Below are positions 30,481 through 47,483 of a stretch of DNA of 64,000 nucleotides, piece after piece. The notes beneath the pieces were generated by a model, which was given only the letters and a program-made list of their open reading frames with translations, was not told where the DNA came from and did no database searches. The stretch is from Albifimbria verrucaria (taxonomy: Eukaryota; Ascomycota; Sordariomycetes; Hypocreales; Stachybotryaceae). The translations under genes and the position numbers were made by a program. The DNA lies in NCBI GenBank assembly GCA_020081605.1, contig JAHREC010000062.1, forward strand, positions 1,674,001-1,738,000. The letters run 5' to 3'. The stretch's first letter is position 1. Each line of letters begins with the position of its first letter.

Positions 30481-31090
30481 ATGGCCGCTGAAGGACGCAT
30501 TGCCACCTTGGATGTAAGTCGATACTTTGGTCACGGTCAGAACAAAGCTCATCTAAAGACTCTAGCCCACCGTGGCCGAAAGGCTTCCGCCCCATTGTGC
30601 GACGCTCTTTGAGGCGAAAGCTGCCAAGGCTCTTAGCTTTGAGGCCATCGCCAAGCACCTTGACAGAAGTGAGGTTGCCTGCGCGGCTCTATTCTACGGT
30701 CAGGCCACGGCCTCCGCGGAAGATATCGAACGTCTTTCCCAGCTCCTCGAGTTACCGAGGGATGCTTTGGCTTCTCAGCTAACGGGGTTCCCTGATAGAG
30801 GGCGTGCCGGCCCCATGCCTCCTGTCGAACCACTCATTTACAGATTGTATGAGATTGTACAGAACTATGGCTACGCGTACAAGGCGATCCTCAATGAGAA
30901 ATTTGGGGATGGCATTATGAGCGCTATTTGCTTCTCCTCATCTGTCGACAAAGAGGTTGATGAAACTGGTGCATCATGGGTTGTCATTACGCTGAGAGGG
31001 AAATGGTGTGTCACTTCATCTCTGCTTATTACATTCATTTCTATTTGAACTTGAGGCTGACTTTCTAGGCTTCCATTTTCACGCTTCTGA
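30481..31090 (+). CDS. CYN1: Cyanate hydratase (cyanase)
   Basis: Enzyme that converts cyanate and bicarbonate to ammonia and carbon dioxide via carbamate, detoxifying cyanate and yielding nitrogen. Three exons (30481-30513, 30566-31005, 31069-31090) give 164 residues, the normal fungal length. The N-terminal helix-turn-helix-like domain ([24 protein letters not shown]) is followed by the cyanase catalytic domain [20 protein letters not shown] and the IMSAI segment, which supply the conserved Arg, Glu and Ser of the family. The end LRGKWLPFSRF-stop is typical, with the last intron splitting the Trp codon. The frame is intact across the whole gene. The expressed start [11 protein letters not shown] is fixed by the first intron. 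Confidence 0.97.
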
Positions 31091-31927
31091 TTTCAACTTG
31101 TTGGATAATCGTGTTCTCCTAGTTGGCTCAAATCAACCTGGAACGGGGCAGCGACGAAGTTGCCTGGATATATCAGCTCATCTACGTGTTATATAGGACG
31201 CTCGAGAACAATCACACCAGTATTATGTAGCAATTGTGGCACTTGTCTCTTAGACTAAGCATTCATATTCCTTCGTTATGTCGTGTATATCTCCCTCTCA
31301 AGCAGTCATGTGATGCCAATTCTCCTCTGAAGTTTATAATCACGTGGCAAGTGAGAGAATAATTACGTTACAGACAATTGCTTATGATATACTGGTGTCA
31401 GCTGGGGTTGCGATCTGGCCAAATTAACTGGATCCTCACAAGAATATCCGTAGACTGGACCCTGTCCAAGATAGGAACATCTGAACCTCGAAATCCACGA
31501 TGATCAATTGTTCTTGCATGCATTGTGCATACGCCTCATTCTGTATCCACACCATCTTTTACATCACCCTCTTTGTCGACAGACATTGCCATCTCTAGAG
31601 GATTTGCAAAGTCACCCTTGCATTACAGTAGTCGTCGGTGTATGTGCTTTTCAACCAAAGGGGTGGAGACAATGCTAAGAACAATATTAAGGGCGTGACT
31701 AACATGGAGAACAATACTTGTGATTTGAAGAAGAATGAAATAGAGAACGGGTCATGGAAAAGGATACCTGGGTGCCTTTTCTGTGTGCTTGTTATCTATA
31801 AGAAGGCTCGTCGTGGTCGTTGTCTGGCTCTTCTGGTCCAGATCATCACCATCGCCACGATACCACTAATCACAAACATTCTCACATCTCTACACATATC
31901 TACACATCTCTACTACCATAAGAAAAC
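31091..31927. other. Intergenic region, upstream of the pheromone precursor
   Basis: This 0.8-kb stretch has no recognisable gene. A TATA-like TCTATAAG lies near 31795, and a CT-rich leader with repeated TCTCTACACAT words lies just before the pheromone start (31880-31915). Confidence 0.5.
31793..31803 (+). promoter_or_regulatory. TATA-like element of the pheromone precursor gene
   Basis: The sequence reads TATCTATAAGA, about 125 bp ahead of the ATG at 31928. The distance suits a short, strongly expressed fungal gene with a short CT-rich leader. It is a motif match only. Confidence 0.4.
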
Positions 31928-32100
31928 ATGCCTTCTAACACTTCTAACAACAACAAGGGTGCTGAGGCCCTCAGGCCACCCCTCTCGGGTGCACGATCAT
32001 GGCAAAGCCTACCTCACCCCAAGCCACGCCTCTGGGATGTGTTGTGATGGCAAAACCTTCTCGTCCTGAGGCTACACCTCTCGGATGTACTATCATGTAA
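31928..32100 (+). CDS. hpp1: Hybrid (h-type) lipopeptide mating pheromone precursor with three CaaX repeats
   Basis: Short precursor starting MPSNTSNNNKGAEA, then three tandem units: PQATPLGCTIMAKPTS (31969-32016), PQATPLGCVVMAKPSR (32017-32064) and PEATPLGCTIM-stop (32065-32100). Each unit holds a Cys-aliphatic-aliphatic-Met box; the last forms a true C-terminal CaaX, the signal for farnesylation, as in a-factor-like pheromones of filamentous ascomycetes. Tandem internal copies are the feature of h-type precursors (HPP1 of Trichoderma reesei, relatives in Fusarium), whose published motif is (LI)GC(TS)VM; here the motif is LGC(TV)(IV)M. The codons differ between copies (ACC/ACG/ACA, GGG/GGA/GGA, TGC/TGT/TGT) while the peptide is kept, so it is a selected protein. 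One base is missing in the C run at 31968-31970, between leader and repeats, as elsewhere in this window; TGA precedes the repeat frame. No dibasic Kex2 site is present. Product length is about 57 residues. Confidence 0.88.
31969..32097 (+). repeat. Tandem 48-bp coding repeats of the pheromone unit
   Basis: Two full 48-bp units and a third of 33 bp run without spacer. The encoded residues are nearly constant (P-Q/E-ATPLGC-T/V-I/V-M-AKP) while third-codon positions vary, so this is an old repeat under protein-level selection and not a fresh duplication. Confidence 0.9.
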
Positions 32101-33050: not shown

Positions 33051-34387
33051 ATGGTGACCAGAAGCAAACTCCGACTAGGCCTTGCCGCCGAGAAAGGCGT
33101 TGACTTTGCTAAGTTGAAGCAAAAGCGCAAGCAGAAGGATGCTTTGAAGAAGAAGGCTCCAAATGGTGGGGCAGCACAGTCGAAGATTTCAGAAGACCAT
33201 GACAGCCAAGACGAGGAAGAGCACTTGAATGAGTCCGACGAGGAAAGCGACGAGGAAGTTGCACAGGTTAGTGACTTGTAGCCGCCGTGTCAATACCGCA
33301 GCCCTGCTAATTTGTCTTCTACCGTAGATGGACCTTGATGCTATCAACGATAGCGATACCTCCGAATCATCTCTGGAACTCGAAGAAAAATCGATCGCAA
33401 AGCTAAGAAATCTTTGAAACCGAATGCGGATGATGACGAAGACGACGAGGAAGAGGAAGAAGATGAGGAGGACATCCCGGTGTCCGACCTTGAAGATCTC
33501 GACGAGGACGAAAAGGAGGACCTGATCCCCACACTAAGCTCACCATATATAACACGGCCGCACTCACGACTTCCATAAATCGAATTGCCATCCCTCAGGC
33601 AAGGGCGTGCCTTTCGCCGTGCACCAAACGATCACCTCCTCAGCCGAGACTGCCAGCTCCATCCCCGACGTATCTGATGACCTTCAGCGCGAGTTAGCCT
33701 TTTACTCGCAGAGCCTTGAGGCTGTGCGTCTGGGCCGAGCCAAGCTTCGCGCTGAGGGTGTTCCATTCTCGCGACCCAAGGATTACTTTGCCGAGATGGT
33801 CAAGGAGGATGCGCACATGGAGAAGGTCAAGGCCAAGTTGGTTGAAGAAGCCTCTGCCAAGAAGGCTGCCGTTGAGGCTCGTAAACTGCGCGACCTCAAG
33901 AAGTTTGGCAAGCAAGTCCAGGTTGCCAAATTGCAGGAGCGTCAGAAGGCTAAGCGAGAGACGCTGGAAAAGATTAAGACTCTTAAGCGCAGTATGTCCA
34001 GACCCCTCCCTCCCTTCTGTCCCTTGTATTGTATAAAATATTCTGACTCCAATGGTAGAGCGTCAAGAATCCGGTGGCGATGTTGGCACCAATGAGGCTG
34101 ATCTCTTTGATGTTGGCGTGGACAACGAACTCGCGAAGCACTCGCAGCGATCTGGCTCTGGACGTGGGCAGATGGGAGGCCGTGCGGGAAACAACAACAA
34201 GCGACAGAAGAAGAATGAGAAGTACGGCTTCGGCGGTAAGAAGCGTCACTCCAAGTCTGGCGATGCTGCCAGCTCTGGTGACCTCAGCGGTTTCAACGCC
34301 AAGAAGATGAAGGCGGGATCGAAGAGCAGAGTCACTAAGGCGTCTAGGCCGGGGAAGAATAGGCGGAAAGCTATGGCGTCTAAATAG
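33051..34387 (+). CDS. EBP2: rRNA processing protein Ebp2
   Basis: Nucleolar protein needed for 27S pre-rRNA processing and 60S subunit assembly (EBNA1-binding protein 2 family). Three exons: 33051-33266, 33328-33991, 34059-34387. The N-terminus is basic then acidic (MVTRSKLRLGLAAEKGVDFAK; DEEEHLNESDEESDEE; a DDDEDDEEEEEDEED stretch). The conserved C-terminal Ebp2 domain contains RELAFYSQSLEAVRLGRAKL, PFSRPKDYFAEMVKEDAHM and the lysine-rich KLQERQKAKRETLEKIKTLK. The end is FGGKKRHSKSGD ... PGKNRRKAMASK-stop, the typical tail. Three one-base losses lie close together at about 33386-33390 (A run), 33527-33530 (C run) and 33592-33594 (C run); correcting each restores conserved protein such as LTIYNTAALTTSINRIAIP. 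ATG 33051 matches the usual start. Confidence 0.95.
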
Positions 34388-35319: not shown

Positions 35320-37184
35320 CTACTGGCTGGCAGCAACACACCAATGCCTGTGGAAGGCCCAGGCGCTCTTCTGGCATTCTTTGCTGCAATACTTGGTCCG
35401 ACGGCAACGGCGGCACTTGGCAAATTGGCGCGTGTACTCTTCCCACTTTCCGCATTGATAGTAGGCACACTGCCTGATGCCTCCACGTGTATCGTCCTTT
35501 CGGCAGAGATTTCTCATAACCACTCCAGCCCAGTATTGCATGTCTGTGCTGTGGTATCTGACTGTGAATTTTTCGACTAGTGGAAAGAGGTTGAAATCGT
35601 CAGCGAGAAGATACTCCTCATCCATGTCTTCCGAGTCGTCCATCTCCAACATCTCGTCCTCACTGTCCAAAGCTGCGAGCTCTTTGGTAATAGTCAACCG
35701 AGGCACGAGGTGGCTCTTCTGAAAATATGACCGGAGGCCGCAGTATTTAGACACATAGGCCAAGAGTTGGAGAGACATTAAAACATCTTCCTCCCGTGGC
35801 ATAGCTGCAACCATTTGCTGGTTCGGAACGAAATGGCGGTCGAGAAGATAGCGAGGAATATTGGTGTGGGGCGCTGGGGCCTGTGGCGGGCTCACGATGG
35901 CTGGGCGGTTTGGTGAAAGGCCCATAGGAGGCACCGTGGTTGCGTTCGTAGTGGTACCGATGCTGCCATCCATGGGTCCTCGATGGGTGATGTTGAATGT
36001 TCCAGCATCTTGGTGTGTTTCGGAGACGGTGGGTGCAGTAAGATCAAGAGAAGCACCAGTTAGCATGCCCTCACCGTCGTCCATGGTGATATCCTGAATG
36101 CCAACTTCAGACTGCATTTCGGCAGTCCCGGTCATCTCAGCGTCGGGTGCTTCATCAGATGGTAAACTATCTCCGTTTAGATCATCAGCCTCCACAGTCG
36201 AGTTTTGATGGCGAATGGATGGTCGCCGGCGAGGGCGACCAGAAGGCCCTATGGATGCAGGTCTGACTGTCGGGGAGCGTAGTTGAGGCGGTGGCAGCGG
36301 TGTGGTAGGCGAAGTTGGTTGAGAGACCATATCGTTAGGACCAAATGGAGCCATAGATGCCAGGCGATCAGCATCACGTACAGGCCGGACGAAACCATCG
36401 GCAGGTTCCATGGTGGAGACGGCGGTAGCTAGCGGTTGAATAGCTTGCCTAGAAGTTGAACCCGAAGCCGACACATTGCGGCCATCGTGGCCGTGAAATC
36501 CGTAGCGGTGTCGTGTTGGGGTCGCAGCTTGGCGATCCTGGGTACTAACAGGCTGAGGCAGAATACTCTGTGCATTTTCTGCGCCCTGAGGAGTAGCAGT
36601 CGACGGACCCGCATATGTAGCGGAGACATCGATCGATGGCGGAGGGCCTTGTCGGCGGAAAGATCGTTGTTCAGGGTCAACACGTGTGGAACGATTGGTG
36701 AAAGATGTGGACGCCTTGGTAGCGTTACGGTGGTCATGGCGGTAGCGATGGTGGTGGTCGTGAAGCTGCTTCTGCTTCACTTCCTCGGCCTTTTCGCGGC
36801 ACTTTTCGATGACTTTGATGTAGTTGTCGAGGATGGTAGCAATGACAGGGACCATGTCAGCCTCCACAACGCGTGTGCGCACGTTTTCCGTGCCACGAAC
36901 GCCGATGTTGACGACACATTGGAACGCGAGATTCCACTTCCACATGCCCATCATATCCTTGCTCCGACCCTGTTTGAGAATGCAGACAAGGCGTTCGATG
37001 CCTCCATCGACAGTGAGGATGTCGCGAATACGAGCTGATGAGGTGGTGAGGTAGGCTAGATGGTTGAGCGAATTGATGAGGGGAGAGTCGAAGTGCAATC
37101 GAGCGCTCGACGATCATAGAGGGCGGTCGTGATGCCCACTGACGCCTTGTTGACGTTGGGAATGCTGAAGTTGACTTCCCTCAT
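35320..37184 (-). CDS. samB: MYND-type zinc finger protein SamB/Mub1
   Basis: Homologue of A. nidulans SamB (hyphal and conidiophore morphogenesis) and yeast Mub1, the partner of the ubiquitin ligase Ubr2 in degrading Rpn4. It starts MREVNFSIPNVNKASVGITT. An armadillo-like N-terminal domain follows (LINSLNHLAYLTTSSARIRDI, GGIERLVCILKQGR, AFQCVVNIGVRGTENVRTRVVEADMVP). A long serine/proline-rich disordered middle comes next, then ADDFNLFPLVEKFTVRYHS. The C-terminal MYND finger is CAYYQCGKWEEY ... CRRCRRTKYCSKECQKSAW ... HRHWC, with all expected Cys/His ligands visible. Length is about 620 residues. One base is missing in the C run at about 37080-37083 (plus-strand GGGG), between TSTLP and LINSL. 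No intron is needed. Upstream is an unusually long CT-rich leader. Confidence 0.93.
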
Positions 37185-44614: not shown

Positions 44615-47483
44615 CTAGAACAGCCCCCAACGACCTCTCTCGGTCCCGCTGTTAGGTTTCTTGTTGGCAATGCCTCGATCCCTTCCTTCTAGCTGTTTCA
44701 GGCTGTCTATCTTCCCAAGCACAAGCTCCAACAGTTCCTTTCGTCGAATAACCTCAAGGTGCTGACGAATTTTAGGGTCTTCTTTGGCAAATTTCTCAAT
44801 ATCCTCTTGAGACAGGTGCCGACCCAGCCGAAGGTCTAGCTCTCGCGGAAAGTTGTAGTAGAACTCTGATAGCAGTTCTACGTTCAAGAAGAGAACCGCA
44901 GTAGAAGCCAATTTTGTGGCTGCAGCATCAAGAAAGACCTCTGGGCAATAATATTTGTTCTTGGCATTGGCACATTGCTTCGACTTGACAGCCATAAGAC
45001 GCATTTTGATGATATCAGCCCGATCGCGAAGAAACACAGCCTCGCGTCCTAAATACTCCAAGTTAGACATATGTTCTCATGAAATCGAAGAAAATCAAAG
45101 AAATATTTTACCTTTACTGAGCAGTTCGGCACTGAATCCACCGGCGCCGCTTCGACCGTCGCCCTCAACGATGATTTCACCTTTCCGTGCCTTATCAACA
45201 AATGTCATAACCTCTTTCAATTTTCGTCGGCCACCGACAGCCGACTCCATTTGAGTCAAGGCAGCTTCGCAGTCGCGCAATTCATTCTTGAGCACGTTGC
45301 CGACATGCTCCCGGCCTTTGGTCCACTCCCTATCTTCAATATCGATTTCGAACTTGTAGGGCTTGATACAATTCTCCACCTGATCACTTGTGCTGTAAAA
45401 TCTTTCATTAAGAATCGTTGATGCGGCATCCATGATAGCTTGGCGGGCAAAAGGATGAGTCGAAAAACTTGATTGATTCAAGAGGCGATCGATATGGGCT
45501 TGAATGGAAGATGCAACGACCGTCGTAGCGAGACGGCCAACGCCGAGTTTTGTCAAAGCCGAAGTAGATGCGTCGAGTTGACGATGCCAGTAAAGAGAGT
45601 TGGCATCTGCTTTGGGTAAATCCGCGAGGCTATCACGCTCTGGCGTGGCAACAGCAAGATCCTCAATGGGCTTGTTCCAGTATCGAGCTGCTAGAAGATC
45701 CAAGACCTTCTGATCAAGCTCGTTCTTGAGTATGTCATGCATTTGTGGTCTGCCAAACTCTTCCGCAAATTGCTTGAAAGAGTGTTTGAAGGCGTCTAGA
45801 CTCTCGGCCAGGTATGACTCCGCTGACAAGGGACGGTCATTGTATTGAACCTTGAACTCGTAGCTTGCCTCTTCCAATTCTTGTCTGATCGCATCGCTCG
45901 TGCCTTGCAGGCTGGACGACATAGTCTGTTCCAATACATGCATAAGCTTCTTGCGAAGTGTTACTGTCCCTACAGCGAGACCAGCCTCAGGTCCAAACTC
46001 ATGAGGGTGGGAAGAGAAGTAGGCCTTCTCATTATTGGCAATAGCGGAGAGTAGGTTGGCGGGTCCTTTTTGAATAGACTTGAAGTTTGGGGACCTTAGA
46101 CACCACACCCACATATCCCAATCGCAAGGGATATTGCTTATCATTTAGAATTGCAGCGCCACGAACAGGATCAACAAGGTCCATCTTGGTAACAACCCCA
46201 ATTGTCCGCTCTCCTCGAGGATCAACCCTGCGGGATGCACGGAGAGCAGTCGAGTTTGCCAAGTCCACATCAGCGGCAGAGATGGCCAGGATAACATTTG
46301 GTGGCTGGATATACTTGTCGCAAAGTTCGGATATCTTCTGCTTCAGCTGAAGAGGCTGATTTTGGCCGACCACCTGGATGTAACCTGGCAGATCGATGAG
46401 CGAGAGATCCGGAACATTCGGCGAGTACACAGTCAAATGTATTGGGTCATCCGAAACACATTCCGAATCTGGCACTGCCAGGTTTAGCTCGGTGAGGGTA
46501 CGCTGGATGGAGGAAAAGTCTGTGATACGTCTCAGACCGAGGTCTGGAAATTCACCGTACTCCTCGGTCGATTCAGGCGTGTTGACAAGAGTCAGTTCGA
46601 TCGGACGTCGGGTGACCATGTTGGAGCCCTTGGGCAAAAATTCGTGGCCGACAATGGCTTCCAGAACAGAGCTTTTCCCCGAGGATTGAGAACCGATGAC
46701 GACGATAGATGGTAACGTCAAACTGCCGGATTGGCCGACCTTTTGCAAGATGGTTCGAATTTCAATCATTTTCTTCGTCAACATCATCATCTGGTCGTCC
46801 TTGGCTATTTCGCTATCACTGCGAGTGTCTTCTTCTGAGGACTGCTCATAACCATAAGCAGCAGCTGAGGCGCCAACAGCAGCAGCAGCGCCGACTCTGC
46901 TTTGCTTTGGATCCCCATCGCCACCAGGGCCTCCGGAACCCCAGTTCCGATTTCTTCGTGGATCCTGAGGATTTTCTGGAGCCATTCTGGCATATCAACT
47001 TGTTCCTTCGTATTTTCCCAGCCTCGTCGTGTTTGGTCTGCCACCTCCTTGGCACTATGGAACAAACTTGATGCTGTTGTAGAAACGGTGTCCTTGGTGT
47101 TATTGAACAGCTCTATCGCGAACGTCCCGGCCTCTGGCATACGTCAGTTTCTCGGTTCACTAAAATGCGGAAGGGGTCAACGAACGGGTGGCTTGGTACT
47201 GAACCCAAGCAAAGGCACCGATGGCGAGACCGCCAAACATAGCAGGAACTCGTAGAAATTTGACCATCAACTTCGGCAGAAAACGAGCAAAAGAAGCATT
47301 CCGAACAGTGACTGCATTGTGAAACGAGTTGCCACTCATCCACATACGACGGCGAGTGGCTCTAATCGATGCTTCTGCACGAAGTAGATCACCGGTCGGG
47401 AAGCGATGCAGATGCCGAGTTGTGTTCGCAGAGGCGCGTCGCGCCACCGGCCGCAAGCCGGCAGCGAGCGCTCGAGCACTCAT
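44615..47483 (-). CDS. MGM1: Mitochondrial inner-membrane dynamin GTPase Mgm1 (OPA1/Msp1)
   Basis: GTPase that fuses the mitochondrial inner membrane and shapes cristae. It starts [18 protein letters not shown], an Arg-rich import signal, followed by a hydrophobic anchor ([22 protein letters not shown]). The GTPase domain has the P-loop GSQSSGKSS, switch MVTRRP, DLPG and TKMD. Middle, stalk and C-terminal effector parts follow to [14 protein letters not shown]. Introns: one after VQYQAT near 47183, and 45111-45049 near the 3' end. A base is missing at the C run 46939-46942 (after EEIGTG), and one extra A lies at 46086-46088 ([13 protein letters not shown]). Length is about 900 residues, normal for the family. 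The start is 342 bp from the SPB1 ATG, so the two genes share a short divergent promoter. Confidence 0.97.

What the first reader, a model, noticed from the sequence alone, without database searches (positions are those of the whole stretch)
31928..32100. Hidden gene for an h-type (hybrid) mating pheromone precursor with three CaaX copies
In one frame the DNA encodes three tandem units, PQATPLGCTIMAKPTS, PQATPLGCVVMAKPSR and PEATPLGCTIM-stop. Each carries a Cys-aliphatic-aliphatic-Met box, and the last sits at the exact C-terminus. Established knowledge: h-type precursors (HPP1 of Trichoderma reesei, relatives in Fusarium) combine the CaaX of a-factors with the tandem copies of alpha-factor precursors, with motif (LI)GC(TS)VM. 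Here Ile replaces Val in two copies and Val follows Cys in the middle copy, widening that motif. A leader starting MPSNTSNNNKGAEA precedes it, one frame off because of a single missing base in a C run. An ORF caller would miss the gene. Synonymous differences between copies show selection on the peptide.
Basis: partly seen in the sequence, partly recalled or inferred. Interest (0 to 1): 0.9.

Follow-up and report, generated by a model that had tools for sequence, protein, structure and literature searches.

The report
Three-copy a-type mating pheromone precursor gene
A mould related to Stachybotrys seems to carry, at the place where related fungi keep theirs, a small gene for a lipid-tagged mating pheromone in three tandem copies; such genes are already known from Trichoderma and Fusarium, and the break that hides this one from gene finders is most likely a base lost in the genome assembly.

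Summary
Window 31969-32100 encodes PQATPLGCTIM-AKPTS-PQATPLGCVVM-AKPSR-PEATPLGCTIM-stop, preceded in another frame by an a-factor-like start at ATG 31928. The gene lies between cyanate lyase and EBP2, with a MYND-finger gene beyond: the locus where Schmoll et al. 2010 placed the h-type precursors of Fusarium. The three units differ mostly synonymously (pS 0.69, pN 0.12). The host is not Fusarium: flanking genes point to Stachybotryaceae. The genome has STE2, STE3 and a MAT1-2-1-like gene. The frame break is most likely an assembly deletion. The neighbouring EBP2 has three breaks in about 210 bp, and chaperonin genes elsewhere have six (two on weak matches); all nine shift by -1 with no room for an intron. 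This is a new member of a known kind. The strict h-type motif is missed by one residue in each copy. In the held papers I found no such gene described for this family. The precursor was not mended. Its function as a pheromone is inferred, not tested.

The parts
31928..31968 (+). leader of the precursor, MPSNTSNNNKGAEA, in a frame other than the repeats
   Evidence: a-factor starts MPSTTT and MSPST of other Sordariomycetes are quoted in PMC3068285
31955..31975 (+). zone of the frame break (-1)
   Evidence: position not resolved
31969..32016 (+). unit 1, PQATPLGCTIM plus spacer AKPTS
32017..32064 (+). unit 2, PQATPLGCVVM plus spacer AKPSR
32065..32097 (+). unit 3, PEATPLGCTIM, CaaX-like box at the C-terminus; stop TAA 32098-32100
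31797..31801 (+). TATAA about 130 bases upstream of the start codon
31207..31715 (.). four AACAAT sites (31207, 31507 on the minus strand, 31680, 31710)
   Evidence: 4 against 0.38 expected in 840 bp; 9 of 632 overlapping sliding windows, and 7 of 98 AT-rich ones, reach 4
30481..31090 (+). cyanate lyase, flanking gene, no frame break seen
33051..34387 (+). EBP2, flanking gene, broken in frame three times between about 33387 and 33600
35323..37098 (-). MYND-finger gene, next flanking gene

Best explanation
It is the a-type mating pheromone gene of a Stachybotryaceae fungus, h-type in design: a short precursor starting at ATG 31928 and ending in three PxATPLGC-CaaX-like units. Shown: the anatomy, the locus and the mainly synonymous divergence of the units. 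Inferred: the terminal CTIM box is farnesylated at Cys, trimmed and methylated, as in a-factors; the internal units are freed by cleavage beside the lysine of the AK spacers and trimmed back to their own boxes, as proposed for rhodotorucine A; up to three near-identical farnesylated ...ATPLGC peptides are exported and sensed by Ste3 of the partner. In the living fungus the gene is most likely intact; the frame break in this sequence is one of many single-base losses in the assembly.
For: Three units with a terminal box; 0 of 150 Markov windows with such a cluster; pS 0.69 against pN 0.12; the locus cyanate lyase - gene - EBP2 - MYND as published; leader like a-factor starts; STE3, STE2 and a MAT1-2-1-like gene present; AACAAT sites upstream. 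For the assembly error: EBP2, with no other copy found, broken three times, six chaperonin junctions of the same kind, all -1.
Against: No continuous frame as assembled. No relative of the peptide in the protein collection. No strict match to (LI)GC(TS)VM in any copy. Cyanate lyase next door has no break, so errors are patchy. No transcript, no peptide, no Fusarium sequence compared, no alpha-pheromone gene found.
Confidence: 0.83

Rival explanations
1. The same gene, but the frame break is a true mutation: this strain has lost its a-type pheromone, as some copies have in unisexual Huntiella.
For: In Huntiella a-factor copies are decaying through premature stops and lost start codons, and a one-base deletion in MAT1-2-7 was confirmed by RNA reads (PMC10182648, passages). 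Sexual stages may be rare in this family (recalled).
Against: The break is of the same -1 kind as nine others in EBP2 and chaperonin genes, which a living fungus needs (essentiality recalled). The repeats downstream show no stop and no decay.
Confidence: 0.11
2. The break is bypassed in life: a -1 shift of the ribosome, an unusual intron, or a start at ATG 31999 giving a two-copy peptide without the leader.
For: An in-frame ATG at 31999 opens a 33-residue reading frame with two boxes. The octamer CCCTCAGG occurs in the window only at this break and at one EBP2 break.
Against: No slippery heptamer, and no GTRNGT donor between 31640 and the break. The octamer is no more frequent than expected (2 against 2.86) and is absent from the chaperonin locus with four breaks.
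Confidence: 0.03
3. Not a pheromone: a chance frame, or another small prenylated peptide.
For: No expression or activity data; CaaX ends alone are not specific.
Against: Published a-factor locus, three conserved units, 0 of 150 simulated windows, leader like a-factor starts.
Confidence: 0.03

Closest known systems
h-type precursors of Fusarium verticillioides, F. oxysporum and F. solani (Schmoll et al. 2010, PMC3068285)
   Same: Locus between cyanate lyase and EBP2, three motif copies, CaaX-like box at the C-terminus
   Different: Other family of Hypocreales; motif LGCTIM/LGCVVM; frame broken as assembled.
HPP1 of Trichoderma reesei (PMC3068285)
   Same: Three copies, C-terminal CaaX, short precursor; HPP1 is needed for male fertility
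   Different: HPP1 lies at another locus and has two Kex2 sites, which its function does not need; no dibasic site here
VdPpg2 of Verticillium dahliae (PMC11077750)
   Same: Short precursor with tandem undecapeptides, internal CaaX-like motifs and lysines named as putative processing sites
   Different: Five repeats, other order; sequence not compared
Multi-copy a-factors of Huntiella and Ceratocystidaceae (PMC10182648, PMC13037118)
   Same: Tandem units, each with its own CpaX box
   Different: Other flanking genes, several gene copies, other peptides
Rhodotorucine A precursor of Rhodosporidium toruloides
   Same: Tandem pheromone units separated by CaaX-like spacers (as described in PMC3068285)
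   Different: Basidiomycete; no sequence compared here

Membership tests
h-type pheromone precursors | three tandem copies of a GC-x-x-M unit | tested here: met
h-type pheromone precursors | one copy at the extreme C-terminus, making a CaaX/CPAX box | tested here: met
   CTIM followed by TAA at 32098
h-type pheromone precursors | strict motif (LI)GC(TS)VM in each copy | tested here: not met
   0 of 3 exact: LGCTIM, LGCVVM, LGCTIM, one residue off each. Schmoll et al. call the consensus loose and expect members that do not match it exactly, so I file it as h-type in design, not by the strict motif.
h-type pheromone precursors | one continuous reading frame with the leader | tested here: inconclusive
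   broken as assembled; the same kind of break in EBP2 and chaperonin genes points to assembly loss
h-type pheromone precursors | two Kex2 sites (HPP1 only, not class-defining according to the authors) | tested here: not met
   no KR, RR or KK in the repeat frame; one search says only HPP1 has them and that they are dispensable
h-type pheromone precursors of Fusarium | locus between cyanate lyase and EBP2 | tested here: met
a-type pheromone precursors | no signal peptide | not tested
   no predictor was run; the leader looks polar by eye
a-type pheromone precursors | prenylated peptide sensed by Ste3, needed for fertility | not testable with these tools
   STE3 is in the genome

The most novel reading that the evidence does not exclude
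The frame switch is real and used: the full-length pheromone precursor is made only by a -1 shift of the ribosome near the CCCTCAGG octamer (in the window only here and at a -1 break of EBP2), so that pheromone output is set by frameshifting.
Probability: 0.02. Interest if true: 0.75.

Novelty: new member of a known kind. Interest (0 to 1): 0.3.

Why it matters
It carries the three-copy prenylated pheromone design to Stachybotryaceae, at the Fusarium position, which fits an old gene at this locus rather than a late replacement (no tree was made). It gives a concrete mate-signal candidate for these moulds. It also warns that in this assembly a broken or missing short gene is weak evidence of loss.

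Tried and rejected
Fusarium as host: rejected. Cyanate lyase is 88% identical to Stachybotrys elegans, 86% to S. chartarum and 80% to Fusarium sp. DS 682 (best 120 of 1901 listed). EBP2 is closest among named proteins to Paramyrothecium foliicola, 92% (best 120 of 2306 listed). A trypsin exon differs clearly from the best solved match, 1fn8, which I recall as the F. oxysporum enzyme.

Intron joining leader and repeats: no good donor. Slippery heptamer: none. A second CaaX gene between cyanate lyase and EBP2, as reported for F. solani: only two starts inside the repeat frame were found. Relatives of the repeat peptide in the protein collection: 2 candidates, none at E up to 10. Six motif strings in print: 0 papers. 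Alpha-pheromone of the W-C...C-W type: 0, 0 and 8 scattered matches for three patterns of growing looseness. MAT alpha box: no match, but the control rang nowhere. A gene model that allows frame switches gave 12, 5 or 0 switches in the window depending on the penalty, so it was not used as a rate. dN/dS controls in the other two frames failed because of stops. Rfam: 0 matches in the window.

Full report
WHAT IS THERE. The frame at 31969-32097 reads PQATPLGCTIM AKPTS PQATPLGCVVM AKPSR PEATPLGCTIM and stops at 32098-32100. ATG 31928 opens MPSNTSNNNKGAEA in a frame from which the repeats can be reached only by a -1 change; that frame ends after 39 residues. The repeat frame has stops up to 31965, and its first own ATG is at 31999, inside unit 1. 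A cluster of three such boxes ending at a stop was found once in the window and in 0 of 150 Markov windows. The repeat peptide has one match in the 48.4 Mb, 41-contig genome.

SELECTION. Over the 11 codons shared by the three units the summed comparison gives pS 0.69 and pN 0.12, ratio 0.18. Numbers are small: 5.0 to 7.3 synonymous and 1.0 to 4.5 nonsynonymous changes per pair. The other two frames hold stops and gave no control.

WHOSE GENOME. The window's cyanate lyase is 91% identical to a metagenome protein named only as cyanate lyase, 88% to Stachybotrys elegans, 86% to S. chartarum and 80% to Fusarium sp. DS 682. The EBP2 piece is closest among named proteins to Paramyrothecium foliicola, 92%. 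Both genera belong to Stachybotryaceae, Hypocreales. The species was not determined.

LOCUS. Cyanate lyase lies upstream (PF02560), EBP2 downstream (PF05890) and a MYND-finger gene beyond (PF01753). Schmoll et al. 2010 (PMC3068285; abstract, sections 6 and 8 and passages seen) describe h-type precursors in F. verticillioides, F. oxysporum and F. solani in the area of the cyanate lyase, EBP2 and MYND genes. They define the class by three copies of the motif, one at the extreme C-terminus. The figure with their sequences is not held, so no residue comparison with Fusarium was possible. By the strict motif (LI)GC(TS)VM 0 of 3 copies match here; each is one residue off. The authors call their consensus loose and expect members that do not match it exactly.

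THE MATING SYSTEM AROUND IT. The genome has STE2, STE3 and a protein with a split HMG box containing PRPPNAYILYRKERHNMVKAANPGISNNE, which I take for MAT1-2-1 from its recalled signature. By the usual rule (recalled) MAT1-2 strains make the a-type pheromone. No alpha box was detected, but that search had no working control. No W-C...C-W alpha-pheromone array was found. The 840 bp upstream of the start codon hold four AACAAT sites against 0.38 expected; 9 of 632 overlapping sliding windows, and 7 of 98 AT-rich ones, reach four. AACAAT is the motif reported in the promoters of VdPpg2 and VdPre1 (PMC11077750, passages). This is suggestive only.

THE FRAME BREAK. I asked whether this assembly breaks frames elsewhere. 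EBP2 orthologues map on the window in consecutive pieces in frames 1, 3, 2 and 1 between about 33328 and 33990. That is three breaks within about 210 bp with no space for introns; the short middle piece is weak on its own with P. foliicola EBP2 (E 0.007) but clear with the Cladobotryum orthologue (22 residues, 59%). No other copy of EBP2 was found. For the Cpn60/TCP1 family I tabulated neighbouring matches. Of 22 junctions (17 chaperonin, 5 EBP2), 12 are intron-sized (+47 to +70 nt), one is a poorly aligned stretch, and 9 leave no room for an intron; all 9 change the frame by -1. Six of the 9 are in chaperonin genes: four in one gene on C8, one on C10 and one on C15. The C15 one and the last C8 one rest on weak end matches (E 6e-4 and 0.03). 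The pheromone break is -1 too. If gains and losses were equally likely, nine agreeing would be rare (1 in 256 if independent, which breaks in one gene may not be). Cyanate lyase has no break, so errors are patchy. All four break zones in the window hold a run of three or more equal bases, but so do 5554 of 9140 random 21-base stretches. The octamer CCCTCAGG occurs twice in the window, at the pheromone break and at the third EBP2 break; 2.86 are expected by chance, and it is absent from the C8 chaperonin locus. I judge the break most likely an assembly deletion (about 0.85), with true loss as the main rival.

HOW IT PROBABLY WORKS (inferred). The terminal CTIM box fits farnesylation (Met at X; Schmoll et al. 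make the same inference for HPP1). The internal boxes can be prenylated only after release. The AK spacers put a lysine just before 11 residues that end in the next Cys (K|PTSPQATPLGC, K|PSRPEATPLGC). VdPpg2 also has undecapeptide repeats, with lysines named as putative processing sites, and Schmoll et al. propose rhodotorucine-like release for this class. None of these steps was tested.

NOVELTY. Class, locus and tandem design are in print: Trichoderma and Fusarium (PMC3068285), Verticillium (PMC11077750, passages), Huntiella (PMC10182648, passages), Ceratocystidaceae (PMC13037118, passages). For Stachybotryaceae I found no paper describing such a gene in the listings (16 of 16 papers seen; 15 of 21; 12 of 181), and none with the motif strings. 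Most subscription journals are not held; the 2011 Fusarium pheromone study by Martin et al., cited in PMC10569646, was not seen. It is a new member of a known kind.

Noticed in passing
window 33387-33600: EBP2 is broken in frame three times in about 210 bp although related proteins are continuous; no other copy was found in the genome.
   Followed up: yes
G000:C8:4817686-4819179, C10:4880246-4881799, C15:3571233-3572766: Chaperonin (TCP-1 family) genes with -1 frame breaks and no room for introns: a sign of widespread single-base losses in this assembly.
   Followed up: partly
window 45098-46985, minus strand: MGM1-like dynamin in two overlapping frames (Dynamin_N, then Dynamin_M); possibly another break, not checked.
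   Followed up: no
G000:C6:2956847-2957113 (L031, L032): MAT1-2-1-like HMG box split in two pieces.
   Followed up: partly
genome: No W-C...C-W alpha-pheromone array found with three patterns, although STE2 is present.
   Followed up: partly
window 31207, 31507, 31680, 31710: Four AACAAT sites upstream of the pheromone gene, about ten times the expectation.
   Followed up: partly
window 31968 and 33592: CCCTCAGG occurs in the window only at these two places, both at -1 frame breaks; may be chance.
   Followed up: partly
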